NCBI GenBank assembly: GCA_036924285.1
Contig: JAYKYS010000002.1
Location: 40,129,501 to 40,193,500, forward strand
Reading direction: 5' to 3'
Source of the DNA: Asterella californica
Lineage: Eukaryota; Streptophyta; Marchantiopsida; Marchantiales; Aytoniaceae
Length of the DNA stretch: 64,000 nt
This document shows, in pieces, positions 10,084 through 60,050 of this stretch. The notes under the pieces are model-generated. The model was not told the origin of the DNA. It did not search any database and saw only the letters and a program-made list of their open reading frames with translations. The position numbers and the translations under genes are program-made. Position 1 is the stretch's first letter. Every line of letters begins with the position of its first letter.

Positions 10084-10936
10084 GGTCTTATGGATAAGGG
10101 ATCTCAGAAGATAGAGTAGTCGGAGCAGCGAGAGAAGAAGAAAGAAGCCTTCTTCCCACAACAGAAGACGACATCTTCAAGTAGAAGACTGTGTAACTGT
10201 ACGCACGTTTGTTGTCTTCCTCCTCAAACTATTACAAGCAGGGATGGCTTGTTAGTCAGGATCCGGACTAGAAGCCTGTCGAAATCTTAATTTCTCCTTT
10301 TCATTTTGTTTCTCTCTCGTTTGGATTTTCCTTTCTTCCCCATCTTCCTCATCTTCTTACCTTCTTCTAGTGAGCTTCCGAGACTTCTATTGAGCTTCCG
10401 TGAAGGTGAATGTCGTTGTAGTGCTGCAGGAAGACCATTTCTGTAGGCAGAAGCCTAGGAAGGTTACAGGGGGCATACACCCTGTGATTAATCTGACCCG
10501 TTGGGACTTGGAAGAGCAATGTGCGACAGACGTTGCTAGTCGACTTCTACGAAGCAGGAGCAGTTTTCTGGAGGTGTGAGAAGCCGAGCTGAACCCCCAG
10601 AAGCCGAGAATTGCTTCCGGAAGACGGTACTGAGAAGACCGAAAGAAGTGACCTGGAAGCAGGAAGCGTCTTCCAGAGTTTATCTGTGGATAGTTGTGTG
10701 ATATTTTAGTTAGTAGTTGTTTGTTTAGGTCGAGGGCACCTTCTGAAAGGTTTGGAAGCCGTGTGGTTTTGTGAGAAGACGGGATTTCTAGACAAAACCC
10801 GTGCGTTTGTGTGTTTGAACAGATCTTAGAACTTAGAGCAGTGTTATTTGTGCAAATCCTCTGTGGGAACGATATCTTTTATACTAAATGGGCAAAAGGA
10901 GTAATCTTACGATACTACAAGTTTCTTACAAGTACG
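10084..10936. other. Right flank of the Ty3 insertion, nothing recognised
   Basis: GAAG/CTTCC-rich DNA resembling the first 550 bases of the window in composition. No frame worth calling. The decayed DNMT-family remnant begins at its right edge. Confidence 0.4.
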
Positions 10937-13470
10937 ACGGTCGTGCCTTCGGTGCTAGAAGGAGCATGCCGTCATGTGTTGGATCAAGCAATGGACTTAA
11001 ACTGCTTGGCTTGATTTGTGAGTCTTGGTTTGCCTAAGCAACATCGGATGTGATCTATATATATTACTGCTGAGACCTTTGTGAATGCTTTGCTTACCGA
11101 GATGATAGAGGCAAAGGTTGGAGGCGATGCAAGTAGAGATCGTCATTCATGGACATCAGTAGATGTGATGAGAAATCATTTGGAGGTTGCAGCTTAAGGC
11201 TTTTGAGTCCATTGATGGTGAGCAGGAGAGACATGCTCATGATGTTGCTCAATAGCAATCAATTGCTTCGTGCTCTACCTCTGGTATGAAGATTAGAGGA
11301 TACTTGGGAGCCTGAGATTGGAGTCAAGCTTATAGGAGGAGAGAGACGAAGCATACACAATCTCCCAAGGGGTTATAAGAACTAGTTTGCCTTCAGTATG
11401 AAGGATTAGGGTACCTTGAAGAAGATCGAGTACATGGATTGAGTTGGCTAGTGACACATCAATCTTTTCATACCTTTATATGTATAATGATATGGAGAGA
11501 GCTTTGATCCAGAGTCGGACTCAAGACTTTTTTGAAACCGGTTTGGTGGAGATATCTTATGAAGAGTATGCATTTGTCATTGTTATGCTGGCCAAGAGGA
11601 TATGTATGTCAACTACACTGATAGACAGATGTGTGGAGACTGCCGTCCTATCAATTGATAGACGAAGTCCAATAAATATGCCATGCCTACACCGGAGGAG
11701 ATCTTTGATGCAGTTGGGCATACAAAGGTCTTCAGTAAGTTGGATCTTCAAGCAGGATATCATCAGTTGTCTATCATAGAGGAGGATATGACCAAGGCAT
11801 CGTTCTGAAAGATTGATCCTCACGGCAAGGATTGTTTCTATCAATGATGATTCTTATCATTCGGTTGGAAGAACGCACTTGCTGAGTTTCAGAAGGTTAT
11901 GGATAGAATCCTAGCAAGATTAGATTTTGTTTGATGTCACGTTGATGACATCATACTCTATAGTGCTATAATGGAGGAGCACGAGAGATATTTACAATTG
12001 GAGTTTGAGCAGTTGAGAGCTCATGGTTTGAAGTTGCATCTTGAGAAATATAAGTTCTTCTAAGATCAAGTGGAGTATCTTGGTCATACTCCTCAGGTGG
12101 ATTAGGAGTGTAGCAAACAAAGGAAGCAATTATACGCATTCCACGTCTCACAGATAGGAGTCGAGTTTGAACGTTTCTTGATTTGATGACTTCTATCGTC
12201 GATATGTGAAGATATTCAGTGTAATTGCAAAGTCTTTGACCAAGTTAACGAAGGTGGACCAAGAGCGGCAATGAGGAGATGAGTAGGAGCGAGCTTTTCC
12301 AGAGCTCAAGGATAGGTTGACATCTGCTCTCATCTTGAAGAGACTTATTAAGGGACGTTTGTTCCAACTGCGCACTGATTGGAGTCTGTTGAGACTTGGA
12401 GTGATGCTGGCACAAAAGGATGATGAGAGAAAGAAGTTCGTTGTGACGTTTGCAAGTCACTTCAACAATTCGGCAGAGTCGAAGTATAGTTCATACGAGG
12501 GAGAGTGTTTGACTGTAGTGTGGACTGTGGAACGCATTAAGTGTTATCTGTTTGAGAACTCCTTCACTCTCATTACTTATCATCAACTGCTCAAGTGATT
12601 AATGAAATGCAATAAGCTTACGGGGAAGCTTGCATGATGGGCTTTGATTTTGCAAGAGTATGACTTCCAAGTAGTTCATAGACCTAAGATAGCGAACGGA
12701 GATGCAGATGTTTTGAGTAGAAATCCATGTACAAGTTAGAAGGATGATATAGGAGCTCCTTGCCATAGTGACACATATGAAGAGGTGGTGCCAAGTGTGC
12801 ATCCATAGGTCTTGTTGTGTTTGTTGGTTCTAGAGGATCATGTGACAATTCTCGGAAGTCAGGGGTAGATGTTGAGTCCTCAGATCCGGAAGATAACGAT
12901 GTTTCGATGTATCAGTGAGATATTCATGATGATGTGATGGTTATGAAATATCTACGTATTGACGTTGTGGTGGACATAGTAAGTGCCAAGGAGCGAGATC
13001 GTGTTCTTCAACGAGCCAAGAGGTTTTGGTGTGAAGAGAAACACGTTCTTCGAGTATGAACGGATGATAGAGTGTGTGTTGTATCACATCTATCGCATAG
13101 AGCATAATTAGTTCGACATGTTCACGAGGAGTTGGGACATTTGGGGATGAAGCGCACATATAGCTTATTCCAAGGACAATATTGGTGGTGCGATATGCAC
13201 ACCGATGTGTAGCAATTGATGACATGATGTGTGATCTGCGATCAAGTACGAGCATTATTCAATACTCCTACTCCATAGTAACACCTCTTATCGAGTATGG
13301 GTTAGGTTACCATTGGAGTTTAGACTTTTCGAGATTTTTATCGTTGACCTTACGACACAACAGATATGTGTTGTTGATGGTGGTACTATCGGAGAAAGAA
13401 AATGAGGATACCGATCTAGTAACTTCTCGATCAAGCGTCTCATCTTGAGTCGTGTGATCATTTATAGCAA
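10937..13470 (+). pseudogene. Decayed remnant of the DNMT-bearing Ty3 element (DNMT end, RT, RNase H, part of IN)
   Basis: Collinear with 46845 to about 49430 of the better copy. It starts in the methyltransferase C-terminus (the motif-X-like stretch around VLDQAMDLNCLA), passes the inter-domain UAG at 11253-11255, and runs through RT (RTQDFFETGLVEISYEEYA), RNase H (12317-12598) and the integrase zinc module and first catalytic region. Many stops and small indels break every frame. Its end near 13470 is my estimate, because similarity fades. There are no LTRs, gag or PHD part, so it is a fragment. Many changes are G to A or C to T, as expected of long-methylated, silenced DNA. It cannot encode an active enzyme. 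Confidence 0.85.
11253..11261 (+). promoter_or_regulatory. Relic of the conserved leaky stop (UAG CAA UCA)
   Basis: Preceded by CAA, this fits the readthrough pattern UAG-CAR-YYA exactly and aligns with 47176-47184 and, on the minus strand, 58458-58466. Its survival in a decayed copy shows the stop is ancestral. Confidence 0.6.
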
Positions 13471-32130: not shown

Positions 32131-32149
32131 ACAGCACCGTCAAACCCCA

Positions 32150-32235: not shown

Positions 32236-32240
32236 CTTCA

Positions 32241-32628
32241 CAGAAATTAGAAACTATACTAAGTTCGTGTAATTTTTTTAAAGTATGCTCATAACAATTT
32301 GTTTTTTTAAATATCATACTAGTACTAATCATAATAATTAAGATAATGTAACAAAGTGTAATATTGTAAGTGACGAAATGATGAACGGAAATAAATATTT
32401 TATAACAGGTGTTTTATCTAGATTAAATACCTCTTTTGTAGATTCTAAAACAGGCATTTTAAGTCTGAATCTTGACTGAATAAAATTTCTCTTTTAAAAT
32501 TTATTATTATTAATTATTATTATTTTTTGTCTTTTAAAAGCTGTTGATATACTCAGTCTATTGTAAATAAATAAAAAGTACTTTTTTGATTCCAGAACAA
32601 TCACATGGTTTACAAAATTTTTTATCTT
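32241..32628. other. AT-rich DNA, nothing recognised
   Basis: Only simple AT-rich sequence with TTATTATTA runs. Confidence 0.35.
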
Positions 32629-34430: not shown

Positions 34431-34662
34431 CTGATGATGTCGATCGTTCTGATTGTCTTCTGTCTTTGACCAGACTCGTGTACTCTGAGGTTTTCACAGT
34501 GAATCTGGTGGTGTCTGTCGTTTTGACTGTCTTGCGTCTTTGGTCAGGTGCATGTACTCGATGTTGTCTCAGAGGTTTTCGTAATGATTCTGGTGGTGTC
34601 CATAATTTTGACTGTATTGCGTCTTTGGCACTTGATGTTCTCTATGTTGTCTATGGCGGCTA
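34431..34662. repeat. Three degenerate tandem units of ~75-86 bp
   Basis: Units start at 34431, 34504 and 34590, each beginning CTG(A/G)TG(A/G)TGTC and containing TTGACTGT-TTGCGTCTTTG-like text. The plus-strand frames here are a product of the repeat. Confidence 0.6.
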
Positions 34663-39420: not shown

Positions 39421-40020
39421 TCTGCACATAACGAAGCAATAATGACCCGGCATCCTCACTTTCCCTCCCAAGATCTCCAGGTCGTCGAGGATGAACTCTA
39501 GGAGGCATGAAGACAATAAAATATACACTGCAGATAAGATCTGTCTTATCAGTCCGGAGGTCCAAACTAGTCAATCGAAGTTGACCAAGAGTTTCCAATA
39601 ATAGATAAGAATATCTAATGCTCAATGAAAAACATAAGAAATAAAGATCTACACTATACCATACTAAAGAAATGAAAAGTGAAAAATATCAACTACAAAA
39701 CATCAATGTATGTTCCTAAGTAAAACTCATTACAAATCTTATATATTTCCACCTAAATCTAAACAAATATGATAATACTTGCATCGGGAAGGAAAATAAT
39801 AAAACAGAGAATTTGAAGGAGGACAAGAGCGGAAGAAGAGAAGAGCAGGAACGAAGTCGGAGGAGAGTTTCTAAAAAAATTGGAAGAAAGTTTGAATGAG
39901 CCAGTGGTAGTAGAAGTCTGAGGTTTAGGGGTGGCTTGGGAGGTTTCCCTCCTGCCGAGAACGCAAGGAGGAAAATTCCCTCCCGCCGAGAATGCAAGAC
40001 TAGAGGGAAAATCCCTCCTG

Positions 40021-40622: not shown

Positions 40623-41160
40623 AGTAGCCGAACTTGTGGTTTAAGGCTGAGAGCTCATCTCCACATTGTTTTTTCTCATCGGCTTGTTGCTGTTACGTTT
40701 AATAAGTTCAAGCAAGAGGTGGAGTCTTCTTTCGCTCATACGTCAGTCTATAAGCTATTGGGATCGTTTGGAAACTCTATTTGCAGGAATGATTTTGAGA
40801 TGCTATTTTCATCACTATTTGATTTTTGATTTTTCGACTAGAACACAATAAATTCAGTATTAAAATATAGATGAAAAATTCTTTCAATCTAACCTTCTAC
40901 ACCATCATACATACTATACATATAAATTTTTATCAAGATATGACGGTTGGAACCTCTTCAAACAATTAAAACCTTTTCAATACTTTTCCACAACACTCTC
41001 TACACAAATCCCAAACCTAACTTGGAGTATTTTTTATAAAGTAAACATTAAAATCGCAAGTAAAATCCCAATTTTTCTTAAAACATATGAGTATTCACAA
41101 GTAGTATTTTACAAGCAGACCAAGGTTGAACAAGGAATGTAACCATCATGTATACTTATC

Positions 41161-41443
41161 TGTTACGTCAGTTTGGTAACTCGGCTAGGTTGACCGAGTG
41201 CGAAGTGGCGGACCCCGGTAAGACCGTTAAGGCAAGTTGGTGAGAGTGCCCACAAGGGGTATACTTCACAGGTAGGGGCTTGGAGACCTCAGTTCTTCAA
41301 GTTGAACCTTCAAGCTCCTAGCTATGGTGGGTAGTCTTGAGAGTGAGATCTGGATTCTCTGCGAGCACAGAGTGGATTTGGCTCGACTGTAGTGATTGTC
41401 TAGTGCCTGTTGGCAGGTGGAGTGAGTACATACCTTGTTATCA
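41161..41443 (+). repeat. 5' terminal repeat (unit B) of the DNMT element
   Basis: Matches 50573-50855 from TGT(T/C)ACGTCAG to CTTGTTATCA. It lacks the 108-bp unit A that accompanies the 3' copy on both sides. Confidence 0.85.
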
Positions 41444-42255
41444 CTTGAAGAACTCAGATTGCAAGGCCTGGGGTAGGGATTTCAGGTCGCAGATTGCTAC
41501 CGGTGGTATCTCCGGAGTTGGCAGATCGTTGGTATCTTCGATTTGCGGGTGCGCGCGTGCGTGGAGTGGCTTGTTTTGGTGTTGTGATCGATCGCTGTGT
41601 GTATGGGTGTCGTTTGAACTCGGTCGCAGTCGATTTGATGATGAGATAGTGCGAAAGCGCTGCTGAAATTTCGCGGAATGTGTTGAAGTGACCATTTTCG
41701 AGCTGAAGTGCGCATTTGGGCGTGGCAGATGAAATAGTCGACAATGTCGGACCGATGTGGGCTCGTTGGAAGCGCGCTGGGAAGACGGTCCTAGTGCAGG
41801 AAGATTCACGAAGTTTGGTCGAGCCGTTTTTGAGTTATGAGAAGTCGAAATTTCTGGTGACGGGTTTTGTGACGGTTTTAGGTCAGCAGAAGTGCGTCGG
41901 GGAGTGTCAGGTTGGATTGGGTCGATAAATTTTGGATCTGAGGAGTGCAGTAGGTGCGCGGGAAGACGATTCCAACGCAACCAAAATCATTCGATTTGGT
42001 GAAGGATCGACGAAGTTACAAGCCGAAGAAGGTCGCGGGTTGGTCAAAATCTGACGTAAATCCCGTCTGCGAGTTCCAAATTGACTGATTTCGACAATTT
42101 GGTGCAATTTCGACCCTGAGTTGCTGTTTCGGGTGTTTACGACGAGGCTTCGAGGAGCAGAGGTGCGTGAGAGCGGAGTGCGAGAGTGCGAAGGCGGAGC
42201 CCGAGCCCGCGCCCGCCGCAAGCCAGCTTGCTGACGTGCGTGAGAGAGGTATCCA

Positions 42256-42364
42256 AGTTTCAGTTGTGTGGGAAGTGTAAAACCAGTAGGTCACCCATCC
42301 CAACACTATTTCTGGACTTGGACGCTTAACTCTGTAGTCTCAACTTTGGCTGTACCACTAGACC
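42256..42364 (-). repeat. Antisense 5S rRNA-like / tRNA-like Pol III segment
   Basis: The minus strand reads GGTCTAGTGGTA (42353-42364, like the A box of tRNA-Gly). It continues AGTTAAGCGTCC (42319-42330) and GGATGGGTGACC (42289-42300). The last two match the box A and box C control elements of plant 5S rRNA at about the right spacing. The 5' half of 5S is not recognisable, so this is not a 5S gene. Cassandra elements of plants carry 5S-derived sequence in their LTRs. Confidence 0.65.
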
Positions 42365-42644
42365 AATAGCTCTTGGTGTCTTACAGGGATGCGTGCAAGT
42401 ACTTAGGGGCTGGTTTAAGGTAGTAGGAGACCTGCTCGCACGTTCCTAGAGGAGTGGTAGGGCGACCCCAGAGTACTAGGGGGAAGCTGCTGTTGTGGTA
42501 GTGTTTGCCTATACCGAAAAGACGCGTATGAAGGCAGTTGGTAGCAGTTGTCTTGGATGAGCTAGTAGAGCTATCACGTTGAAATTTTGGAGCTACTAGA
42601 GGTGTGGACGGCTAGTTAGTAACCTTAGGTGCAGGTTATGACAG

Positions 42645-42677
42645 TCGGTGATCATATATTATGCATGTGATCACCGA
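42645..42677. repeat. Leader hairpin
   Basis: TCGGTGATCA and its exact complement TGATCACCGA around a 13-nt AT-rich loop. Position in the leader suits a packaging or dimerisation signal, but that is inference. Confidence 0.6.
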
Positions 42678-43078
42678 AGAAGACGCGTCAGTCCGGGTGG
42701 GGCTGGGTTTCTCTTTATGTGAATGTTTGAGTGTGGAGGGTTATCGTTTGGACTTCTTGTGGTTGGAACCCCTCTATATTCTGCTTCTTGTTTGTACGCC
42801 GCGTTTGCTTGTGTTGGCGCTTGATTTCCAGAGTGAGTTCACTCTAGTGTGCTGTCGGTAGTGAGGCTGGAGTGATGACCAGTCAGACTACTTTTGTTTC
42901 TCTCACGGTGCAGTTGGAGTGACGACCAACAAATCGTGAGAGGCTGCTTGTGGTGATGGCAGGTACAAGTTGCCCTTACCTTGACTGTCTTAGTAGGGGA
43001 TAGATGAGCTCAGTAGGAGCAGGGATAGGCAAGTTGTAGTTACGGTGGTGACGAGGATTTCGACATTCGGGTTAGAGA

Positions 43079-45562
43079 GTGTGTTCGCGAGATTCTATCA
43101 CCACGGAGTTCTCGGGAGGTTCTGGTGAGGACTTCTCGGATAGTGGGTATACACGGAGTGGGGTGAGGTACCGACTACCTACACCATTGCCGTTGGTTGT
43201 TCCAGAGGACGAGTCAGACGTAGACAGTGCGTTTTCTGCTGGTGAGACTAGTGTCACCACATTGTTGTTGTGGGACATGGACGAGATCTATGGGACCACG
43301 AAAGGGCCTCGACGTTACTCGGGTACGGTGGGTACCATTGAGCTGGATGACTTCATACAGGAGTTCGACAGTTGGTGCGATCTGCAACAGATGCGGAACC
43401 CACAGTTGTTCACACCTTTCATGACGTGGAAGGGTTTGTTTCAGCACTTGGAGGGACCGCCGATGGACGATTACCACGAGTTCAGGCGAGACTACGGTGT
43501 TGAGATTGAGTTGTGGAGACAACATTGGTCTCCCAACTACGTTTTTATCACTACTGGTGCAGTTTCGGGAGGCGTAGCACCTTCGAGGTCAGGTGCCAGT
43601 AGTAGTGGTACATCCACGGGTGGCGGAGTCCCTACTACCAGCGGTGCGTACACTAGTAGTGGAGCAGGTGGTAGTGCGAGCGGGATACCACCAGAGTTTA
43701 ACCCTGTGGTTCAGTTCTTCCACTGTTTGAGGAAGAATTATCAGGGTGTGCGGACCGACAAGTTGAAGAGTTTGCAGGAGTTCCAGCGGAAGACTGGAGA
43801 GAGCCTACGCGAGGCGTTTACTCGCATGAGGCGGTTGATCAGCGTTACCCAAGGAGTGACGGAAGCACAGGCAGTCCAGTTCTGGTATGAGATACTAGAC
43901 CGGGAGCTACGTAGGAGAGTCAGAGATGCCACTCTCCTTAGAGACACCGCTCCGACATTGACGGTTGTCTTTGGTTTGGCTGAGCGGATTGAGCTCAACA
44001 TGATAGAGGAGAGGGTGGTGACTGCTGGGTTCAGCAGAGACGCATCACATGGGGCGACCTCCTTTTCTCGAGGATTACAGGCTACGCAACAGCGAGGTGG
44101 TGGTGGTGGTGGTAAGGATCGTGCTGAGCACTCACGATCCCATGGAGGTGCTGGAGGATCTGGTGGGCAGAAGCTCATGCCGTCCTTCTCTAGTCAGCAG
44201 CAAGCAGGTCCTTGTTGGACTTGTGATGGTCCTCATCAGCAGAAGGATTGTCCACAAAGGAGAGGTAGTTATGAGACATCTGGGACGTCTCAAGCGGTGC
44301 CTAGGCAGTGTGAGCACTGCGTGCGACCAGGTCACAGTAGTGACCGTTGTTTTGATCTCCATCCAGAGCTACGACACGAGAAGACTGATCGTGGACGAGG
44401 CGGAGGAGCTCAGGGAAGCCGTGGTGGTCGAGCTGGAGGTAGAGGTCCAGCACCTGGGAGAGGACCAGTTGGTCCACCGCCTGCTACAACGTCAGAAGCA
44501 GGTATGGCTGCTCGGATTGAGCAGTTGGAGCAGAGGATAGCTAGTATGGCTATGGCTCAGCGGAGATCTGGTGGAACAGAAGCTTCCACGTCTTATGGAG
44601 GAGAAGGAGGTGACTTTGACTTCATGGCTGGTGTGGCGCAGATTGAGGCATCTGCGACAGTGACTCGGAGTGCAGTGCGTATCTCTGAGCCACGGGGTGC
44701 GTCAGTGGAGTTGGATCCACAACGCGGGGAGGCTGGTAGACAGACCAGACTTCCTCAATCGTTCACGCTATCAGAGGCATTGAGGACCACTTCTATGGTT
44801 CCTAAACGACCTACCGATGGTGCAATGGAGTTGGAGACATCGACATCCAAGAGTGGGGATAATGTGAGTCAACCCTCGACGTCTATGGATGCGACGTCGA
44901 ACCCGATGTTGGGGGCGGTTACCGTAGTCTTGCGAGCCCCACTATTTTCAGCCACGGATATGAAGACATTGGGAGTCAGCTTGGCTCCAGTGTTCCAGTT
45001 GGCAGCCACGCTCAGTGAGAGCGAGGATGTGGTTACCTCTAGTGCTGAGGTGGTTCAACAAGAGGCGGTAGGTGTGTCCATGGAATCGAAGATCAGGACA
45101 GCTACTAGTGGTACTTGGCAAGCGGCGGCTGCTAGGCTAGATGAGTTACCAGCTAGACCGACAATTGACCGTGCTGGATTGGCACCAGGTGTGGTGTTGT
45201 TGGACAACAGAAGTGGTATCTTCTGTTTGGTGGCACCTTCAGGGAAGGTGTATCGACCACAGAAAGTGTTGTTAGACTCTGGAGCTCAACCGTTGATGTT
45301 GGGAAAGGCGGCGTGTATCGGTTTGGGCCTAAGGAAGTCCGAAGTAGAGAGATGTCCATTCCAGCTACAAACATCTCTAGGGGGATCAGGAGGTACAACT
45401 CTACACATGACACGCGAGTTGCTGACGGTGAGAGTTAGACCAGATCATCCCACGGATGGTTCCATGGTGAGGGCCAAGGCTATCGTTACGGCCGCGGAGT
45501 CTTATGATGTATTGGTTGGAGGTGCTGTATTATACCCTATGGGGTTCGTGATGGACTATTAG
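43079..45562 (+). CDS. Gag-protease of the DNMT-bearing Ty3 element
   Basis: A frame of 827 codons, opening at a GTG after an in-frame TAG. The first ATG is codon 67 (43277), so either that ATG or a spliced or non-AUG start is used. Residues 60-330 are Gag-like and helical, interrupted by a Gly/Ser/Thr-rich insert. Two knuckles follow: CWTCDGPHQQKDC from Cys379 and CEHCVRPGHSSDRC from Cys411. A long Gly/Arg- and Ser-rich linker leads to retropepsin, with LLDSGAQP (Asp733) and a later ILVGGA-like flap region (VLVGGAVLYP). It forms the particle and processes the polyprotein. The frame ends at TAG 45560-45562, but the same frame stays open beyond it into the linker. The Pol part is therefore probably reached by suppression, or the stop is a mutation. 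This Gag differs completely from the Gag at 60 kb. Confidence 0.85.
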   Translation: MCSRDSITTEFSGGSGEDFSDSGYTRSGVRYRLPTPLPLVVPEDESDVDSAFSAGETSVTTLLLWDMDEIYGTTKGPRRYSGTVGTIELDDFIQEFDSWCDLQQMRNPQLFTPFMTWKGLFQHLEGPPMDDYHEFRRDYGVEIELWRQHWSPNYVFITTGAVSGGVAPSRSGASSSGTSTGGGVPTTSGAYTSSGAGGSASGIPPEFNPVVQFFHCLRKNYQGVRTDKLKSLQEFQRKTGESLREAFTRMRRLISVTQGVTEAQAVQFWYEILDRELRRRVRDATLLRDTAPTLTVVFGLAERIELNMIEERVVTAGFSRDASHGATSFSRGLQATQQRGGGGGGKDRAEHSRSHGGAGGSGGQKLMPSFSSQQQAGPCWTCDGPHQQKDCPQRRGSYETSGTSQAVPRQCEHCVRPGHSSDRCFDLHPELRHEKTDRGRGGGAQGSRGGRAGGRGPAPGRGPVGPPPATTSEAGMAARIEQLEQRIASMAMAQRRSGGTEASTSYGGEGGDFDFMAGVAQIEASATVTRSAVRISEPRGASVELDPQRGEAGRQTRLPQSFTLSEALRTTSMVPKRPTDGAMELETSTSKSGDNVSQPSTSMDATSNPMLGAVTVVLRAPLFSATDMKTLGVSLAPVFQLAATLSESEDVVTSSAEVVQQEAVGVSMESKIRTATSGTWQAAAARLDELPARPTIDRAGLAPGVVLLDNRSGIFCLVAPSGKVYRPQKVLLDSGAQPLMLGKAACIGLGLRKSEVERCPFQLQTSLGGSGGTTLHMTRELLTVRVRPDHPTDGSMVRAKAIVTAAESYDVLVGGAVLYPMGFVMDY

Positions 45563-45825
45563 ACGGAGACAGCATCTTACAGACCAGGTTGGCAGTCCGG
45601 TGAGGGACGAGTGAGCCGCTTACCAGTGCGGTTCAGTGCTAGAATTGGGGCAACGGAGCTTACATCAGAGACGATGGCATCCGTTGCAGGTTTCAGTTCG
45701 GTCATCACTTGGCCGGGCGAGTTGTTAGAGAGCAATGCCCATGCGGAGGATACTCCGGTCTTTGAGGAGGTGGAGGACATGCCTAGCATGTCTATGTTAG
45801 TACCATCTGCTTTGGATGTTCCACT
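45563..45825 (+). pseudogene. Linker between protease and methyltransferase, broken by a 19-nt deletion
   Basis: In the gag frame after the TAG, the sequence is open and reads VSRLPVRFSARIGATELTSE, then VFEEVEDMPSMSMLVPSALD. The minus copy at 59.8-60.0 kb has the same protein text and then continues straight into the methyltransferase. Here 19 nt are missing next to TTGGATGTTCCACT, which moves the frame so that the methyltransferase is read one frame over. The matching shift in frame arithmetic supports one ancestral reading frame. Confidence 0.75.
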
Positions 45826-47178
45826 TTGCAGCAGTATGCCGATCGGTTGGTACAGCACGCTTGGAGTGAAGCCTTTGTACCGCCAGTAGAAGAACATCGG
45901 GGTGTTCGTGTTACTGGCCCTGTGACCTTAACACCGTTGGATACGACTCTCATTGCATGGCAGTATCCAAAAGAGGATGTGTGTGTGCTGGAGCTGTTTG
46001 GAGGGATCAGCACAAGTTTGGCTGCGGTATTGCAGGCAGGCATACAAGTACAGCGATACTTGTATGTGGAGAGAGATGAGGTCGCAAGACGTGTCTCATT
46101 GCGTCACGTGGCGCGTTTGGTGCAGAGATATCTTGAGTTGTTGCTTATATCAGCTGTTAGAGAAAATCAGCAAGCATTACCGTCAGATATTTTGCTGCTG
46201 GGGGCGCAGGATCTCACGTTTGTTGGCACCATTCACTTGGTGATAGCCGGGTGGCCATGTCAAGATCAAACGCGTGCTGGGAGAGGTCAGGGTTTACATG
46301 ACCCGCGATCTAGGATGTTCTGGGAGATGGTACGGATCTTACGACATCTCCAGATGCATCAAGTGGATTCTCCAGCGTACATCTTGGAGAACGTTCCTTT
46401 GTTGGGTGATGCTCGTGCACATATGATGACGAGTGTGCACCAAGTGCGGTCCTGGGTCGGACCGGCAGTGTTGTTAGATGCAGCGAGAGTGGGATCTCGT
46501 GCACATCGTCCACGGTTGTGGTGGACGAACTTGTTACCAAGAGAGGTGCTCAAGCGCGCACACGATGCAGTGAGACGACCAGCGCACCTCACCGTGGATG
46601 GCATCTTGGATGCAAGACGACGATCTCAAGTAGTGAGAGTCGTCGATAGGTCACCCATGGCAGTTGTGAACCTAGTGGGACAACCTATGGCAGCGTTACT
46701 CACTTTGGTGAGCTTTCCAGCGTCACATGCTTACAGAGATGGAGGACCTGGGCTTGTGTGGGATGCTCGGTTACAACAGTTGGTGGAGCCCAATGCCGAC
46801 GAGAGAGAGAGATCGATGGGTTTCCCTACGGGTACGACTGCAGTAGCTTCGGTGTCAGAGGCTTCACGTCGTCAAGTGTTGGGTCAAGCAATGGACTTGA
46901 ACTGCTTGACATGGATTGTTAGTCTTGGATTGGCTGAGCAGCGTCGGATGCGATTGACGGGTGTTACTGCTCGGACACTCCTGAGCTCTTTGCCTACCGG
47001 GTCGGTGGAGGTAAAGGCTGGGGGCGAGGCACGTGGAGTTCGTCATCCTTGGACATCATGGGATGTCGTAGGAGAGAGTGTGGAGCTTACAGCTAGAACT
47101 GCAGAAGTTTTTCGCACAGTAGCGGTGGAGGTTGTTGGTGGTGAGCAGAAGGAAACTGCTCCAGAGACTGCAAGATAG
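45826..47178 (+). CDS. DNMT3-like cytosine-5 DNA methyltransferase domain of the Ty3 polyprotein
   Basis: 450 codons, opened at a TTG by the upstream deletion, so no true start is expected. Motifs in canonical (not DRM-rearranged) order: motif I VLELFGGIST (54-63, S-adenosylmethionine binding); motif IV AGWPCQDQTRAGRG with the catalytic Cys at 145; motif VI YILENV with Glu188; motif VIII RVGSRAHRPRLWWTNL (221-236, much like the AAHRARYFWGN stretch of DNMT3); a short target-recognition region; ERERSMGFPTGTT and VLGQAMDLNCL, matching the DNMT3 C-terminal motifs IX-X. PCQ in place of the DNMT3 PCN is unusual. It would transfer methyl groups to cytosine 5, perhaps on the element's own cDNA or at its target. 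All core catalytic residues are present. It ends at UAG 47176-47178, in frame with the reverse transcriptase. A host-derived capture is likely; a bacterial-type Dcm origin is less likely. Confidence 0.9.
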   Translation: MQQYADRLVQHAWSEAFVPPVEEHRGVRVTGPVTLTPLDTTLIAWQYPKEDVCVLELFGGISTSLAAVLQAGIQVQRYLYVERDEVARRVSLRHVARLVQRYLELLLISAVRENQQALPSDILLLGAQDLTFVGTIHLVIAGWPCQDQTRAGRGQGLHDPRSRMFWEMVRILRHLQMHQVDSPAYILENVPLLGDARAHMMTSVHQVRSWVGPAVLLDAARVGSRAHRPRLWWTNLLPREVLKRAHDAVRRPAHLTVDGILDARRRSQVVRVVDRSPMAVVNLVGQPMAALLTLVSFPASHAYRDGGPGLVWDARLQQLVEPNADERERSMGFPTGTTAVASVSEASRRQVLGQAMDLNCLTWIVSLGLAEQRRMRLTGVTARTLLSSLPTGSVEVKAGGEARGVRHPWTSWDVVGESVELTARTAEVFRTVAVEVVGGEQKETAPETAR

Positions 47179-47184
47179 CAGTCA
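47176..47184 (+). promoter_or_regulatory. Conserved leaky stop codon UAG CAG UCA
   Basis: A single UAG separates the methyltransferase and RT frames; ten sense codons later the first Met of RT appears in the same frame. The context AGA UAG CAG UCA fits the plant-virus readthrough pattern UAG-CAR-YYA. The same site is present in both other copies (UAG CAA UCA at 11253; UAG CAG UCA on the minus strand at 58466-58458). Confidence 0.8.
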
Positions 47185-47208
47185 ACGACTTCGTCTTCTA
47201 CCTCTAGC

Positions 47209-47994
47209 ATGGTGACAGAGGATACTTGGGAGCCAGAGATTGGACCCAAGCTTATAGAAGAGGAGAGACAAAGAGTTCAGAGATTCCTGAAGAGCTACAG
47301 GAATTGTTTTACCTTTAGTATGAAGGATTTGGGTACCTTGAAGGGACCAGGTATACGGATCGACTTGGCTAATGACACGTCAATCTTTCGACGTCCTTAC
47401 AGGTACAATGACATGGAGAGAACCTTGATCCAGAGTAGGACTCAAGACTTGGTGGAAGCTGGGTTGGTGGAGATGTCGCATGGAGAGTATGCATCCGCCA
47501 CAGTGATGCCAGCAAAGAAGGATATGTATGGCAACTACACGGATAGGCGCATGTGTAGAGACTATCGTCCTATCAATCGACAGACGAAGTCCGATAAGTA
47601 TGCCATGCCGACACCTGAGGAGATCTTTGATGCAGTGGGACATATGAAGGTCTTCAATACTTTGGATCTTCGAGCAGGGTATCATCAGTTGCCAGTGAGA
47701 GAAGAAGATAAGCCCAAGACAGCATTATGGAGGATTGACTCTCACGGCAAGGATTGTTTGTATCAATGGCGGTTCTTATCATTTGGGTTGAAGAACGCCC
47801 CTGCTGAATTCCAAAGAGTGATGGATAGGATCCTAGCAGGATTGGATTTTGTCAGATGCTATATTGACGACATCTTGGTCTATAGTGCTACAGTGGAGGA
47901 GCACGAGAGACACTTGCGGGATGTGTTCGAGCGGTTGAGAGCTCATGGATTGAAGTTACATCCTAGGAAGTGCAATTCTTCCAGGAGTTGGTAG
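47209..47994 (+). CDS. Reverse transcriptase of the DNMT element
   Basis: Reads in frame from the UAG, first Met at 47209. Key motifs: RMCRDYRPINRQ, the LDLRAGYHQ block, YQWRFLSFGLKNAPAEFQ and the catalytic YIDDILVYS (Asp-Asp intact). The frame ends early with a wrong tail (KCNSSRSW) because one G is missing near 47974. The other two copies keep the base and continue as KCKFF. RT copies the genomic RNA into DNA. The rest of the enzyme follows in the next frame from 47970. This is a single recent lesion in otherwise good sequence. Confidence 0.9.
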   Translation: MVTEDTWEPEIGPKLIEEERQRVQRFLKSYRNCFTFSMKDLGTLKGPGIRIDLANDTSIFRRPYRYNDMERTLIQSRTQDLVEAGLVEMSHGEYASATVMPAKKDMYGNYTDRRMCRDYRPINRQTKSDKYAMPTPEEIFDAVGHMKVFNTLDLRAGYHQLPVREEDKPKTALWRIDSHGKDCLYQWRFLSFGLKNAPAEFQRVMDRILAGLDFVRCYIDDILVYSATVEEHERHLRDVFERLRAHGLKLHPRKCNSSRSW

Positions 47995-50291
47995 AGTATT
48001 TGGGTCACACCATCTACCCAGGCGGATTGGGTGTTCAACAGACGAAGGTCGAGGTCATTGCACGTATTCCACGCCCCACAGATGTGAGTCGAGTTCGAGC
48101 ATTTGTTGGTTTGGCGAACTTTTATCGTCGATACGTGAAAGGATTTAGTGCAATTGCGAAGCCATTGACCAAGCTGATGAAGGTGGACCAGGAGTGGCAG
48201 TGGGGAGATGAGCAAGAGCGAGCTTTCGTGGAGCTCAAGGATAGGTTGACATCTGCTCCCATCTTGAGGAGACCCGTTAGGGGACGTCCTTTCCAACTGC
48301 ACACTGATTGGAGTATGTTGGGACTTGGAGCAGTGCTGACTCAGCATGATGATGAGAAAAAGGAGTTTGTGGTGGCGTATGCCAGTCGCTCCAACAATTC
48401 GGCGGAGGCGAGGTACAGTTCGTACGAGGGGGAGTGTTTAGCTGCAGTGTGGGCTGTTGCACACTTCCGATGTTACCTTTTTGGGAACCCTTTTACTCTC
48501 ATCACTGATCATCAGCCGCTCAAGTGGTTGATGGAGTCCGACAAGCTTACAGGGAAGCTTGCACGATGGGCTCTGATCTTACAAGAGTATGACTTTCAGG
48601 TAGTGCATAGACCTGGAATTGCAAACCTAGATGCCGATGGGTTGAGTCGCAACCTGTGCACGAGTCAGCAGGATCAGATTGGGGCTCGATGGCATGATGA
48701 GGTTGATGAGGAGATAGTGCCAAGGTGGCATGCATCTGCCTTTCTTTGTGTTTTGGTCATGAACTCTAGTATGGAGGGCCAAGTCGTATCTTTCTCAAGT
48801 GAGAGAATAGATGACGAGTCTCCAGATCCTGAGGGTGGAGATGGTGTTCCAAACCAGCGAGATATCCATGACGATGTGACCGTGATGGAATATCTACGTA
48901 CTGGTGTGGTGGTAGGCACAGTAAGTGCCAAGGAGCGAGATCGTGTCCTTCAACGAGCGAAGAGATTTCGACGAGAAGGACGACATGTACTTCGAGTGTG
49001 GGATGATGGGAGAGTACGAATAGTGCCACATCCATCCCAGAGGACACAATTAGTACAACATGCTCATGAGGAGTTGGGACATTTTGGAGTGAAGCGCACG
49101 TATAGCTTACTCCAAGGACAGTATTGGTGGCGTGGTATGCACGTCGATGTGCAACAATTTGTCGCACGATGTGTGGTTTGTGATCGAGTACGAGCATCGT
49201 TTAATGCTCCTACTCCACAACTACACCCCTTACCGATTATGGGGTTGGGTTACCGTTGGAGTTTGGATTTTGTGGGACCCTTATCGTTGACGGTACGTCA
49301 TCATCGGTATGTGTTGGTGATGGTGGAGCACTTCTCCAAGTGGATTGAGTTGGTGGCATTACCAGACAAGGCGAGTGAAGGGACGGCGTATGCGTTCTTA
49401 GATCGAGTGCTAAGTCGTTTTGGAGCACCAGCTGAAGTGCTGACAGACCAAGGTACAGAGTTCCTTGGTGAGTTTCAGGTCTTGTGTGATCAGGCGGTGA
49501 TTGATCATCGAACTACGTCTCGAGATCATCCTGAGGCGGATGGTTTGGCGGAGAGGGTAGTTCAGACGGTGAAGAGAGGATTGCGTAAGTATGGCTTGCA
49601 GAAAGGCCACTTGGGAGACTGGGATGTGCAGTTACCATGGTTGGCTATGGGTTACCATTTTAGCCGACAAGCGTCTTTGGCTTCCTTCTCACCGTATTTT
49701 CTATTATACGGTCGAGATCCAGATCTACCTTCGGCCATTCGTCGTGATTCTGCTGAGGTGCTGAACCTTGATGATCCGGATATGTGGGTGAGAGCATGTT
49801 CTCAACGAGCAGAGACATTTCGGAGAGTTATGCCCATGGCTTTTGAGAATCTAGCGATTGCTCAGCATAGAGACACGTTGCGATATGCGACTATCCGAGG
49901 AGGAGGTTATCGACCATCGATTCGCAGGTTTCATCCTGGCGATTATATCTATCTGCAGCAGACTGCACCGACGACGTTGGATGTGACCGCAGGACGCACT
50001 ATTTTACGAGTGCGTGAGGTGTTACCTTCTGGAGTACTCATGTTAGAGGGCCGTGATGGTGTTGTTTGGAAGGACCATGTGCGTAATTGCGCGCCATGTC
50101 ATCTTCCCAACATCGATGATACCGTTGACCCAAGCTTGGCAGTTGTACGAGCAGGCTTGAGGTGTATGTTGTGTGGGTCAGCTCGTATGTTGGTGTGTGA
50201 TGGTTGTTCGAGAGGTTGGCACATGTCATGTTTGACTCCACCTCTCACTGTCATTCCTATTGGACGGTGGGTTTGTCCTCGATGTATATAG
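47970..50291 (+). CDS. RT thumb, RNase H, integrase and PHD finger of the DNMT element
   Basis: 773 codons, continuing the RT after the 1-nt deletion; the apparent GTG start is not real. RNase H shows LHTDWSMLGLGAVLT and ITDHQPLKWL. Integrase has the zinc module H-x4-H...C-x2-C (HEELGH...CVVC) and the catalytic triad in WSLDFVGP, LTDQGTEFLG and HPEADGLAERVVQ. A GPY/F-like C-terminal stretch follows (IRRFHPGDYIYLQQT and beyond). The last 45 residues are a clear PHD finger: CMLC, CDGC, HMSC and CPRC in C4HC3 spacing with the conserved Trp before the final pair. PHD fingers read the histone H3 tail, so this may guide integration as chromodomains do in chromoviruses. No chromodomain is present. 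The frame ends at 50291. Confidence 0.9.
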   Translation: MQFFQELVEYLGHTIYPGGLGVQQTKVEVIARIPRPTDVSRVRAFVGLANFYRRYVKGFSAIAKPLTKLMKVDQEWQWGDEQERAFVELKDRLTSAPILRRPVRGRPFQLHTDWSMLGLGAVLTQHDDEKKEFVVAYASRSNNSAEARYSSYEGECLAAVWAVAHFRCYLFGNPFTLITDHQPLKWLMESDKLTGKLARWALILQEYDFQVVHRPGIANLDADGLSRNLCTSQQDQIGARWHDEVDEEIVPRWHASAFLCVLVMNSSMEGQVVSFSSERIDDESPDPEGGDGVPNQRDIHDDVTVMEYLRTGVVVGTVSAKERDRVLQRAKRFRREGRHVLRVWDDGRVRIVPHPSQRTQLVQHAHEELGHFGVKRTYSLLQGQYWWRGMHVDVQQFVARCVVCDRVRASFNAPTPQLHPLPIMGLGYRWSLDFVGPLSLTVRHHRYVLVMVEHFSKWIELVALPDKASEGTAYAFLDRVLSRFGAPAEVLTDQGTEFLGEFQVLCDQAVIDHRTTSRDHPEADGLAERVVQTVKRGLRKYGLQKGHLGDWDVQLPWLAMGYHFSRQASLASFSPYFLLYGRDPDLPSAIRRDSAEVLNLDDPDMWVRACSQRAETFRRVMPMAFENLAIAQHRDTLRYATIRGGGYRPSIRRFHPGDYIYLQQTAPTTLDVTAGRTILRVREVLPSGVLMLEGRDGVVWKDHVRNCAPCHLPNIDDTVDPSLAVVRAGLRCMLCGSARMLVCDGCSRGWHMSCLTPPLTVIPIGRWVCPRCI

Positions 50292-50451
50292 CAGGGATAG
50301 CCGATTAGATCTTTGCGTGGTATGGATTGCAGACAGGCGACTAACGATGGAGCAATGTAGCACCCGGCCTCCTGATCCTTGCACCCATGAAGGTGTATAT
50401 CACGTAGTTGAGATATGGAGCTATCTGGAGTTAGAGGGACCTAACCGCCAG

Positions 50452-50464
50452 TTAGGGGGGCGAT
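50452..50464 (+). other. Polypurine tract of the DNMT element
   Basis: TTAGGGGGGCGAT directly precedes TGTGGTACAC, the start of repeat unit A. This favours an LTR that starts with unit A. Confidence 0.6.
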
Positions 50465-50962
50465 TGTGGTACACTTGTGTATGTGTATGACATCGTCCAT
50501 GTGTTATGTGTATGTGTGGTGTTCCCTTGTCAGCGATGTATGTTGTGTAGCGATGTGTATGCGCACGACAGCTGTCACGTCAGTTTGGTAACTCGGCTAG
50601 GTTGACCGAGTGCAAAGTGGCGGACCCCGGTAAGACCGTTAGAGCAAGTTGGTGAGAGTGCCCACAAGGGGTATCCTTCGCAGGTAGGGACTTGGAGACC
50701 TCAGTTCTTCAAGTTGAGCCTTCAAGCTCCTGGCTATGGTGGGTAGTCTTGAGAGTGAGATCTGGATTCTCTGCGAGCACAGAGTGGATTTGGCTCGACT
50801 GTAGTGATTGTCTAGTGTCTGTTGGCAGGTGGAGTGAGTACATACCTTGTTATCATTGTGGTACACTTGTGTATGTGTATGACATCGTCCATGTGTTATG
50901 TGTATGTGTGGTGTTCCTTTGTCAGCGATGTATGTTGTGTAGCGATGTGTATGCGCACGACA
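50463..50962 (+). repeat. 3' terminal repeats in A-B-A order
   Basis: Unit A (108 bp, 50463-50570), the dinucleotide GC, unit B (50573-50855), then unit A again (50855-50962, one mismatch to the first). B ends TTATCA and A begins TTGTGG. The A-GC-B joint reads CGACA-GC-TGTCACG. See the finding on permutation. Confidence 0.85.
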
Positions 50963-50966
50963 TATC

Positions 50967-57506: not shown

Positions 57507-60050
57507 GTACCGACGATAGAAGTTCACCAAACCAACAAATGCTCGAACTCGACTCACATCTATGGGTCGTGAGATACGTGCAATAGCCTCAACCTTCGTC
57601 TATTGAACACCCAACCCATCTGAGTAGATGGTGTGGCCCAGATACTCTACCAACTCCTAGAAGAACTTACACTTCCCAAGGTGTAACTCCAACCCATGAG
57701 CTCTCAACCGCTCGAACACATCTCGTAAGTGTCTCTCGTGCTCCTCCACAGTAGCACTATAGACTAAGATGTTATCAATATAACATCTGACAAGATCCAA
57801 TCCTGCTAGGATCCTATCCATCACCCTCTGGAATTCAGTAAGGGCGTTCTTCAACCCAAATGGTAAGAACCGCCACTGATACAAACAATCCTTGCCGTGA
57901 GAATCAATTCCCCAGTATGCTGTCTTGGACTTATCTTCTTCTCTCACCAGCAACTGTCGATATCCTGCTCGAAAATCCAAAGTACTGAAGATCTTCACAT
58001 GCCCCACTGCATCAAAGATCTCCTCAGGTGTCAGCATGGCATACTTATCAGACTTCATCTGCCGATTGATAAGACGGTAGTCTCCACACATCCGCCTATC
58101 CATGTAGTTGTCATTCATATCTTTCTTTGCCGGCATAACTGTAACAGATGCATACTCTCCATGCGACATCTCCACCAACCCAACCTCCAACAAGTCTTGA
58201 GTCCTACTCTAGATCAAGGCTCTCTCCATGTCATTGTACATGTAAGGACGTCTAAAGATTAGCGTGTCATTTGTCAAGTCGATCCGTATACCTGGTCCCT
58301 TCAAGGTACCCAAATCCTTCATACTGAAGGTAAAACAATTCCTATAGCTCTTCAGGAATCTCTAAACTCTTCGTCTCTCCTCTCTTATGAGTTTGGGTCC
58401 AATCTCTGACTCCCAAGTATCCTCTGTTATCATGTTAGAGGTAGAAGACGAAGTCATTGACTGCTATCTTGCAGCCTCTAGAGCAGTTTCCTTCTGCTCA
58501 CCACCAACAACCTCCACCGCTACTGTGCGAAAAACTTCTGCAGTTCTAGCTGTAAGCTCCACACTCTCTCTTATGACATCCCATGATGTCCAAGGAATGA
58601 CGAACTCCACGCATCTCGCCCCCAGCCTTTGCCTCCATCGATCCGCTAGACAAAGAGCTTAGGAGTGCCCGAGCAATAACACCCGTCGATCGCATCCGAC
58701 GCTGCTCTGCCAATCCAAGACTAACAATCCATGTCAAGCAGTTCAAGTCCATTGCTTGACCCAACACTTGACGACGTGAAGCCTCTGACACCGAAGCTAC
58801 TGCCGTCGTACTCATAAGGAAATCCATCGCGCTCTCTCTCGTCGGCATTGGGCTCTACCAACTGCCGTAATTGAACATCCCACACAAGCCCAAGTCTTCC
58901 ATCTCTGTAAGCATGTGACGCTGGAAAGCTCACCAAAGTAGGTAACGCTACCATGGGCCGTCCCACCTGATTCACCACTGCCATGGGTGACCTATCGACG
59001 ACTCTCACTACTTGAGATCGTCGTCCTGCTTCCAAGATGCTATCAACCATGAGGTGCGCTGGTCGTCTCACTCCATCGTGTGCGCTCTTAAGCACCTCTC
59101 TCAGTAACAAGTTCGTCCACCACAACCGTCGACGATGTGCACGAGATCCTACTCTCGTTGCATCCAACAACACTGCCGGTCCAATCCAAGACCGCACTTG
59201 GTGCACACTCGTCATCATCTGTGTACGAGCATCACCCAACAAAAGAACGTCTCCAAGATGTACGCTGGAGAATCCATCTGATGCATCTGGAGATGTCGTA
59301 AGATCCGTAACATCTCTCAAAACATCCTAGATCGCGGGTCATGTAAACCTTGACCTCTCCCAGCACGCGTATGACCTTGATATGATTACCCGGCTATCAC
59401 CAAGTGAATGGTGCCACCAAACGTGAGATCTTGCACCGCCAACAGCGAAATATTTGATGATAATGCTTGCTGGTAGTCTCTAGCGGCTGATATGGACAAC
59501 AACTCAGGATATCTCTAAACCAAACGTGCCACATGACGCAATGAGATGCGTCTCGCAACCTCATCTCTCTCCACATACAAGTATCGATGTACTTGTATGC
59601 TTGCCTGCAATACCGCAACCAAACCTGTGCTGATCTCTCAGACATATATCCTCCTCTGGATACTGTCACACAATAGGAGTCGTATCCAACGGTGATAAGG
59701 TCACAGGGCCAGTAGCAGGAACAACCTTTGATTCATGTACAAAGGCTTCACTCCAAACCTGCTGCACCAACCGATCAGCATACTGCTGCAACTCTCCACT
59801 CGAACTCCAGAGTGACACATCCAAGGAAGATGGTACTAGCATGGACATGCTAGGCATGTCCTCCACCTCTTCAAAGACCGGAGTATCTCTGCCTGGACAT
59901 TGTCCTCTAACAACTCGTCCGACCAAGTGATGACCGAACTGAATCCTGCAACGGATGCCATCGTCCCTGGTGTAGGCTCCGTTGTCTCAACTCTAGCACT
60001 GAACCGCACTGGTAAGCGGCTCACTCGTCTCTCACCAGACTGCCAGCCAC
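57507..60050 (-). pseudogene. Minus-strand fragment of the DNMT-bearing element (linker, DNMT, RT)
   Basis: Collinear with 45588-48134 of the plus copy. It contains the linker (VSRLPVRFSARVE, 59836-60024), the methyltransferase (about 59900-58467), the conserved UAG (58466-58464) and RT (58193-57657, ending KCKFF). It shows what the plus copy lost: the 19 nt before the methyltransferase and the G at the RT break are present here. The copy has its own damage. The catalytic PCQ has become SYQ after a stop (TGG CCA TGT to TAA TCA TAT; Cys codon at 59380-59382), the ENV block has a deletion, and RT YIDD reads YIDN. At 60050 it joins an unrelated Gag. Confidence 0.9.
58458..58466 (-). promoter_or_regulatory. 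Conserved leaky stop (UAG CAG UCA), second fragment
   Basis: AGA UAG CAG UCA, identical to the plus copy, although the flanking sequence has diverged. Confidence 0.7.

What the first reader, a model, noticed from the sequence alone, without database searches (positions are those of the whole stretch)
45826..50291. A Ty3/gypsy retrotransposon that encodes a DNMT3-like DNA methyltransferase and a PHD finger
Seen: cytosine-5 methyltransferase motifs I, IV (PCQ), VI (ENV), VIII and IX-X in canonical order, directly upstream of and in frame with RT-RNaseH-integrase, followed by a C4HC3 PHD finger. Three copies in this window share the DNMT-RT join, so it is a family trait and not a chance insertion. 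Known: retrotransposons with captured DNMTs were described in charophytes and dinoflagellates, and chromoviruses use chromodomains to target integration. Inference: this lineage combines a DNA-methylation writer and a histone reader, parallel to host DNMT3 with its PHD-like ADD domain. It may methylate its own cDNA or its target, hiding from or exploiting host silencing.
Basis: partly seen in the sequence, partly recalled or inferred. Interest (0 to 1): 0.97.

Follow-up and report, generated by a model that had tools for sequence, protein, structure and literature searches.

The report
Inside-out LTR retrotransposon with DNA methyltransferase
A many-copy family of jumping genes in this (probably moss- or liverwort-like) genome carries a DNMT3-like DNA-methylation enzyme and a histone-reading-type finger, has its end repeats arranged inside-out, and likely inserts by way of a DNA circle, so it would be a genomic parasite that brings along the kind of mark hosts use to silence it.

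Summary
In the family the DNMT belongs to the Gag-protease frame (about 1,370 aa), which ends in UAG-CAG-UCA. That stop and its context are kept in 38 of 39 alignable genomic copies. The RT-RNaseH-integrase-PHD frame (1,041 aa when open) follows in phase, presumably by readthrough. The window copy is broken by a premature stop and two frameshifts.

The element is 9,802 bp (41161-50962). Its repeats are A-coding-B-A-B, as in DIRS elements, yet it encodes a DDE integrase and sits in a 4-bp duplication (11 of 15 copies perfect). It has an 11-nt self-primer whose two sides co-vary in three states. The A2|B2 joint varies in 6 of 24 copies, some with primer-site or PPT letters, as LTR-LTR joints do; the B|A joint (GACA-GC-TGTC) keeps its length. 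Likely model: self-primed cDNA closes into a 2-LTR circle, and integrase opens it at the B|A palindrome.

The DNMT is under purifying selection and stands apart from host DNMT3. Closest known is KnitGypsy-Dnmt3 (Klebsormidium; same repeat order). DNMT activity, histone binding and the circle are untested. Verdict: new variant of a known kind.

The parts
41157..41160 (.). left target-site duplication TATC
   Evidence: matches 50963-50966; 10 of 14 further two-ended copies have perfect 4-bp duplications, 4 of 14 have one mismatch
41161..41442 (+). A1, left terminal repeat, begins TGTTACG
   Evidence: repeat of A2 50573-50854
41291..41302 (+). self-primer segment (inferred RNA 5' end)
   Evidence: reverse complement of 41443-41454; co-varies with it in three states over 13 of 13 rows that hold both sites, of 15 rows (printed alignment)
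41443..41454 (+). primer-binding site, complementary to A1
   Evidence: 0 of 20,000 single-base shuffles of A1 hold the 11-nt complement
43076..45562 (+). Gag and aspartic protease part of frame 1 (zinc knuckles from about 44213 and 44309, DSGA protease motif 45275-45286); cut here by a premature TAG at 45560
   Evidence: (gag only E 0.05, under cut-off); the relatives read Trp at the stop
45787..47175 (+). DNMT3-like cytosine-5 methyltransferase (end of frame 1)
   Evidence: PCQ, ENV and the motif VIII Arg kept in each of the 39-40 covered copies
47176..47184 (+). conserved TAG-CAG-TCA stop, readthrough-type context
   Evidence: 38 of 39 alignable of 40 genomic copies; one has an 8-bp deletion there; window copies TAGCAGTCA, TAGCAGTCA, TAGCAATCA
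47179..47994 (+). reverse transcriptase (in phase with the DNMT after the TAG); frame lost at its end in this copy
   Evidence: PF00078 1.2e-26
47967..50291 (+). RNase H, integrase (H2C2 and rve) and PHD
   Evidence: integrase D, D, E kept in each of the 29-30 covered copies
50163..50288 (+). C4HC3 PHD finger at the integrase C-terminus
   Evidence: PF00628 5.6e-9; nearest solved: CHD4, PHF12, PHF21A, KDM5
50455..50462 (+). polypurine tract GGGGGGCG
   Evidence: directly before B1
50463..50570 (+). B1 repeat, ends CGACA
   Evidence: 99% identical to B2
50567..50576 (+). B1-GC-A2 palindrome GACAGCTGTC, inferred integrase site
   Evidence: 24 of 26 readable of 29 rows identical, 2 with one substitution, none with a length change
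50573..50854 (+). A2 repeat
50855..50962 (+). B2 repeat; A2|B2 is an LTR-LTR type joint
   Evidence: 18 of 24 readable joints (of 29 rows) exact, 6 with added or changed bases
50963..50966 (.). right target-site duplication TATC
57507..60048 (-). second copy, DNMT-TAG-RT, truncated
10910..13412 (+). third, older copy: end of DNMT, TAG, RT to integrase

Best explanation
This is a Ty3/gypsy-type retrotransposon family whose Gag-protease frame ends in a DNMT3-like methyltransferase and whose integrase ends in a PHD finger; it likely primes its own reverse transcription, likely closes its cDNA into a 2-LTR circle, and is predicted to insert by opening that circle at a palindrome inside the LTR. 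Shown: the 9,802-bp layout TSD-A1-PBS-gag-PR-DNMT-TAG-RT-RNaseH-IN-PHD-PPT-B1-GC-A2-B2-TSD, its recurrence over genomic copies, the 4-bp duplications, the co-varying self-primer, the conserved UAG-CAR-YYA stop, purifying selection on DNMT, RT and IN, and the separation of these DNMTs from host DNMT3. Inferred: most ribosomes stop after the DNMT, so DNMT is made at Gag level and packaged, while readthrough makes Pol. RNA starts at about 41291, pairs with the PBS and primes itself. Normal strand transfers make LTR(B-GC-A)-coding-LTR. The ends are ligated. Integrase cuts GACA^GC on both strands of one LTR and joins the CA ends to target DNA with a 4-bp stagger, giving A-coding-B-A-B. The packaged DNMT would methylate the cDNA or circle before or at insertion, so that the new copy looks like host chromatin. 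The PHD would steer integrase to nucleosomes with unmethylated H3K4.
Against: No RNA, protein or methylation data. RNA start and end, readthrough rate and circle are inferred. The six variable joints could be later mutations or slips in strand transfer; three of them are only an added T, and the single-letter PBS match is weak. In other lineages the DNMT runs into RT without a stop (P0127), and one Gag-protease-DNMT protein goes on for about 480 aa (P0227), so the stop is not universal. The DNMT tail before the stop shows no protein constraint (pN/pS 1.61, on a low pS of 0.033). The PHD pN/pS is 0.62, a weak case for selection over 43 codons. CpG is not depleted over the element (0.79 against 0.80 in window 24000-40000), though it is lower in A1 (0.52) and in B1-A2-B2 (0.70), so no clear mutational trace ties the enzyme to its own copies. 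Three rows in the clade with DNMT before integrase lack it there, so it may be dispensable.
Confidence: 0.6

Rival explanations
1. DIRS-like route without circle opening: RNA runs from A1 through B2, and the internal B1-A2 block templates the missing ends, so a linear A-coding-B-A-B cDNA is made directly and inserted by the integrase.
For: The same repeat order serves DIRS elements this way (recalled); B1-A2 holds both ends fused; 18 of 24 readable A2|B2 joints are exact.
Against: A2|B2 would then be copied and should be as stable as B1|A2, but 6 of 24 joints vary, two with three or four PBS or PPT letters, against 0 of 26 length changes at B1|A2 (three rows not readable there). The self-primer and PPT beside A1 and B1 fit ordinary LTR synthesis.
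Confidence: 0.3
2. The DNMT serves the host-element truce: it helps silence new copies (self-limitation) rather than protect cDNA.
For: C-to-T changes among copies are raised at CG (0.045) and CHG (0.052) over CHH (0.030), so copies are likely methylated after insertion; slowing of retrotransposition is raised as a possibility for other retro-DNMTs in PMC5890265.
Against: Host DNMT3 and DRM genes are present and could do this alone; the CHG signal points to host enzymes.
Confidence: 0.25
3. The DNMT is a passenger or has only a structural, nucleic-acid-binding role in Gag.
For: The Klebsormidium retro-DNMT gave no methylation in yeast, a result its authors call inconclusive (PMC5890265).
Against: pN/pS 0.257 and unbroken conservation of the PCQ Cys, ENV Glu and motif VIII Arg in the covered copies.
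Confidence: 0.12
4. An ordinary LTR retrotransposon into which a host DNMT3 was recently inserted by chance.
For: DNMT3-like; gypsy domain order.
Against: Many copies, homologues in Calypogeia, Sphagnum, Marchantia and Riccia by source names, and a tree that sets the retro-DNMTs apart from host DNMT3.
Confidence: 0.01

Closest known systems
KnitGypsy-Dnmt3 of Klebsormidium nitens (de Mendoza 2018, PMC5890265; parts 1-4 of 7 read plus passages)
   Same: Gypsy domains, Dnmt3-related DNMT without rearrangement, repeats ordered as in DIRS, purifying selection on the DNMT; a K. nitens IN-PHD protein (P0113) is 52% identical to this integrase over 74% of the query region
   Different: There the DNMT is described in the Pol frame; here it ends the Gag-protease frame before a conserved UAG. 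PHD does not occur in the main text (0 occurrences); self-priming, duplications of the Gypsy element and joint diversity were not met in the parts and passages read
SymbioDIRS-Dnmt3 (same paper)
   Same: Dnmt3 in a retrotransposon with A-coding-B-A-B repeats; its DNMT methylated CG in yeast
   Different: tyrosine recombinase and DIRS class there; DDE integrase with target-site duplication here
Tf1/Sushi and Tj1 self-primed LTR elements (PMC6317226, PMC4600332; passages read)
   Same: priming from the RNA's own 5' segment, complementary to the PBS; gag-pol stop codon in Tj1
   Different: LTRs at both ends there; permuted repeats, PHD and DNMT here
DIRS/PAT elements
   Same: repeat order A-coding-B-A-B with fused ends inside
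   Different: they use tyrosine recombinase without target-site duplication (recalled); here rve integrase and 4-bp duplications

Membership tests
DNMT3-type C5 methyltransferase | closest to DNMT3 among solved C5 methyltransferases, motifs in order I to X (not rearranged as in DRM) | tested here: met
   motif order from the sequence
DNMT3-type C5 methyltransferase | groups with host DNMT3 genes in a tree | tested here: inconclusive
   one branch separates retro-DNMTs from DNMT3, DRM and HhaI; the root is unresolved and only four outside rows were used
DNMT3-type C5 methyltransferase | de novo DNA methylation | not testable with these tools
   needs enzyme assay
Ty3/gypsy retrotransposon | RT, RNase H, then H2C2/rve integrase in this order | tested here: met
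Ty3/gypsy retrotransposon | insertion with short target-site duplication | tested here: met
   4 bp: 11 of 15 perfect, 4 of 15 one mismatch
Ty3/gypsy retrotransposon | two identical terminal LTRs flanking the coding part | tested here: not met
   A-coding-B-A-B instead; B-A-B in the 28 of 40 fetched copies that reach the 3' end
chromovirus | chromodomain at the integrase C-terminus | tested here: not met
   Pfam finds PHD and no chromodomain at E up to 0.1
DIRS/PAT element | split direct repeats | tested here: met
DIRS/PAT element | tyrosine recombinase, no target-site duplication | tested here: not met
   rve integrase and 4-bp duplications
self-primed (Tf1-like) retrotransposon | PBS complementary to a 5' segment of the element's own RNA | tested here: inconclusive
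   complementarity and co-variation met; that the RNA starts there is not shown
KnitGypsy-Dnmt3 kind | Gypsy domains, Dnmt3-like DNMT and DIRS-type repeat order together | tested here: met
   against the text of PMC5890265
KnitGypsy-Dnmt3 kind | DNMT inside the Pol frame | tested here: not met
   TAG between DNMT and RT in 38 of 39 alignable copies
DNMT3 ADD domain | histone reader on the same polypeptide as the DNMT, GATA plus PHD | tested here: not met
   single PHD on the integrase beyond the stop; nearest solved are CHD4, PHF12, PHF21A, KDM5

The most novel reading that the evidence does not exclude
A retroelement that moved its integrase attachment site from the LTR ends to a palindrome (GACA-GC-TGTC) inside the LTR. 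Self-primed reverse transcription makes an LTR-LTR circle, and a DDE integrase opens that circle to insert it: the circle-junction route once proposed and abandoned for retroviruses (recalled), here used by an element that also packages a DNMT3-like enzyme at Gag level to methylate its own circle and aims with a PHD reader.
Probability: 0.42. Interest if true: 0.92.

Novelty: new variant of a known kind. Interest (0 to 1): 0.77.

Why it matters
Beyond the one charophyte of PMC5890265, it places DNMT-bearing Gypsy elements in bryophytes (Calypogeia, Sphagnum, Marchantia and Riccia by source names) and, with the DNMT just before the integrase, in a sister clade of mostly unnamed environmental sequences (one member, from Haematococcus, lacks DNMT at that site). 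It puts the DNMT on the Gag side of a conserved stop, which predicts a packaged enzyme in molar excess over Pol and makes the question 'does a retroelement methylate its own cDNA?' directly testable. It also shows DIRS-type repeats used by a DDE integrase with target-site duplications, with evidence in the joints for a circular intermediate: a concrete case in which an integrase may act on a circle rather than on linear ends.

Tried and rejected
Direct DNMT-RT fusion: rejected for this family by the conserved TAG. A normal LTR pair: not found; repeats are A...B-A-B. Recent capture of host DNMT3: rejected by the tree with host gene L001. UAG read as sense throughout: unlikely, since the other TAG, in the gag-protease frame, stands where relatives have Trp. 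Related loci in viral contigs: none confirmed (where 6 stretches matched a pattern and none encodes a relative). CpG depletion as a self-methylation trace: absent over the element. A readthrough RNA structure after the stop: z -2.0 for one copy, 6 of 200 shuffles fold as well; co-variation not tested. Whether IN-PHD copies without DNMT exist in this genome: not answered (tool busy). A last protein search, meant to reach Klebsormidium polyproteins, named none (5 hits, the query among them). Literature searches; in the listings shown I saw no paper on DNMT or PHD Gypsy elements of bryophytes, on self-primed DIRS-type Gypsy elements or on circle opening by their integrase; only open-licence PMC was searched, and the longer listings were cut at 12-20 papers. 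Foldseek and VIA lists show DNMT3 and bacterial C5 methyltransferases; other families are not excluded by absence.
Full report
Setting. The window is C102:40129501-40193500 of a 516.7-Mb, 773-contig assembly. The named protein matches of the DNMT are bryophyte: Calypogeia fissa, Sphagnum, Marchantia and Riccia. That the host is a bryophyte is an inference from these.

What is in the window. A 9,802-bp element lies at 41161-50962. Frame 1 carries Gag (zinc knuckles by eye; Pfam gag only E 0.05), an aspartic protease with DSGA, and a C5 methyltransferase. Frame 2 carries RT, RNase H, H2C2-rve integrase and a PHD finger. This copy is defective: a TAG at 45560 where relatives have Trp, a frameshift near 45.8 kb and another near 47.97 kb. 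Two further copies share the DNMT-RT join: minus strand 60048-57507, and plus strand about 10910-13412 (older).

Where the DNMT sits. In copies 1, 2 and 3 of the window DNMT and RT are in the same phase and separated by TAG-CAG-TCA, TAG-CAG-TCA and TAG-CAA-TCA. Of 40 further copies fetched from the genome, 39 could be aligned at the junction: 38 have TAGCAGTCA and one has an 8-bp deletion there. The stop lies in a 14-base run without substitutions (47171-47184, gaps ignored) among 41 rows; 59 of 2,164 nine-base windows in 45787-47960 are equally unchanged. Third-position diversity falls around the stop (0.037, 0.028 and 0.015 in the three 90-base bins from 46957, against 0.048-0.128 in the 13 bins before). 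UAG-CAR-YYA is the context of leaky stops of the tobacco mosaic virus type (recalled; my paper search for it found nothing). DNMT proteins of several relatives also end shortly after the domain, for example four clusters ending in GIQ (P0060, P0067, P0071, P0075), but proteins over about 810 aa were outside that search. In the genome search, 16 of 123 scored PF00145 matches (of 1,250 candidates) lie in open frames of 1,367-1,381 aa, the expected size of Gag-protease-DNMT. Frame 2 is open over 1,041 aa in 4 of 40 copies.

Other layouts. Among 227 proteins from three searches (architectures: for 223, for 4), 26 carry the DNMT just before the integrase; in two, P0225 and P0226, RT and RNase H are seen before it in one polyprotein. 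In a 69-row integrase tree these 26 lie in one group of 29 rows (100/100) with three rows that have no DNMT found between RNase H and integrase (P0158, P0185, Haematococcus P0193). In the DNMT trees the same layout is one group (100/98 and 100/99), next to two Gag-protease-DNMT proteins, P0224 and P0227 (95-96/86-88, only 84-85/83-87). The simplest reading is one old capture in front of RT and one later move. P0127 joins DNMT to RT without a stop, and P0131 seems to (by eye); P0227 goes on for about 480 aa after its DNMT. So the stop is a feature of this branch, not of the whole group.

The PHD. Its nearest solved relatives are CHD4, PHF12, PHF21A/BHC80, KDM5 and KAT6A/DPF fingers, several of which read unmethylated H3K4 (recalled). 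Of the 120 integrase-bearing proteins among 223, 114 carry it, including Klebsormidium nitens P0113; the query held the PHD and only the best 120 of 350 hits were listed, so this share is biased upward. Each zinc ligand is kept in at least 27 of 27-29 covered copies, five of the eight with one exception.

Ends and insertion. The repeats are A1 41161-41442, B1 50463-50570, A2 50573-50854 and B2 50855-50962. Of 40 fetched 3' parts, the 28 that reach the PHD end carry B-A-B (L027 and L046 with extra pieces); the other 12 break off earlier. Of 20 fetched 5' pieces, 14 showed the left end. Ten of these have a perfect 4-bp target-site duplication and four have one mismatch (compared by eye from the flanks printed); the window copy has TATC on both sides. 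The ends are TGTCACG (TGTTACG in the window) and CGACA, so a DDE integrase most likely acted on an A end and a B end.

Self-priming. Directly after A1 lies ACTTGAAGAACT, the complement of AGTTCTTCAAGT inside A1. The 11-base pairing exists in three states (CTTGAAGAACT in 5 rows, CTCAAAGAACT in 7, CTCGAAGAACT in 1, each with its matching A1 segment) in 13 of 13 rows that hold both sites; two further rows of the 15 run out of the fetched piece (states 2 and 3 read from the printed alignment). Priming from the RNA's own 5' segment was first shown for Tf1 (PMC4600332, passage; see also PMC6317226, passages).

The circle. Self-priming plus the PPT before B1 would give ordinary cDNA with LTR = B-GC-A (392 bp). 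The genomic copies are instead what results if the two LTRs are joined and the ring is cut at B-GC-A of one LTR. Two observations support this. The A2|B2 joint was readable in 24 of 29 rows (28 copies and the window; L027 is rearranged, and the pattern missed four): 18 are exact and 6 vary. These six are L010 with ACT (the first three PBS letters), L045 with A (one PBS letter, weak), L032 with GGCG (the last PPT letters), and three with a T. The B1|A2 joint, readable in 26 of 29, does not change length; 24 are GACAGCTGTC and 2 have one substitution. The LTR outer ends differ between subfamilies (GTTATC and CAGATT), while the inner palindrome does not.

Selection and age. Pairwise pN/pS over 41 rows: DNMT core 0.257, RT 0.178, RNase H 0.156, integrase 0.216, integrase C-terminal part 0.229, PHD 0.624, DNMT tail 1.61 on a pS of 0.033. 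The PCQ, ENV and motif VIII Arg codons are intact in each of 39-40 covered copies, and the integrase D-D-E in each of 29-30. A1 and A2 of the same copy are 94-100% identical in 15 copies (280 of 280 in one; two compared over short pieces), so some insertions are recent. C-to-T changes are raised at CG and CHG sites, as host methylation would do; the element as a whole is not CpG-poor (0.79), A1 alone is lower (0.52).

Comparison. de Mendoza and co-workers (PMC5890265; parts 1-4 of 7 read, and passages) described Dnmt3-bearing Gypsy elements with DIRS-type repeats in Klebsormidium, in the Pol frame, and CG methylation by two SymbioDIRS enzymes in yeast; the Klebsormidium enzyme gave no activity, called inconclusive. 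PHD does not occur in the main text. A plant-wide survey of LTR elements has no mention of PHD or methyltransferase in its main text (PMC6317226, word counts). So the kind is known; the frame position and stop, self-primer, duplications, joint diversity and bryophyte spread are what this work adds to what I could search. Supplementary files and figures were not available to me.

Not shown: transcription in this plant (a related transcript frame exists in EukProt, P0107), readthrough, enzyme activity, histone binding, the circle, and the effect on silencing.

Noticed in passing
window 2244-7154 (-): A second, more distant Ty3/gypsy element with one open 1,636-aa gag-pol frame and no DNMT or PHD found.
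   Followed up: partly
window 19729-22680 (-): An open 983-aa frame for a P-type cation ATPase, apparently without introns.
   Followed up: no
L001 (C1:40145511) and L002 (C419:30573634): Host DNMT3 (unrearranged, with PCQ) and host DRM both in this genome.
   Followed up: partly
window 46957-47226 and fetched copies: Third-codon-position diversity is low around the stop while protein change is not: perhaps an RNA element; one 6-bp hairpin encloses the UAG.
   Followed up: partly
L046, 3' end: An extra A-like piece after B2 (B-A-B-A), perhaps a tandem or nested end.
   Followed up: no
P0190 (source name Spirochaetia bacterium): A DNMT-integrase-PHD protein filed under a bacterial MAG; likely algal contamination.
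   Followed up: no
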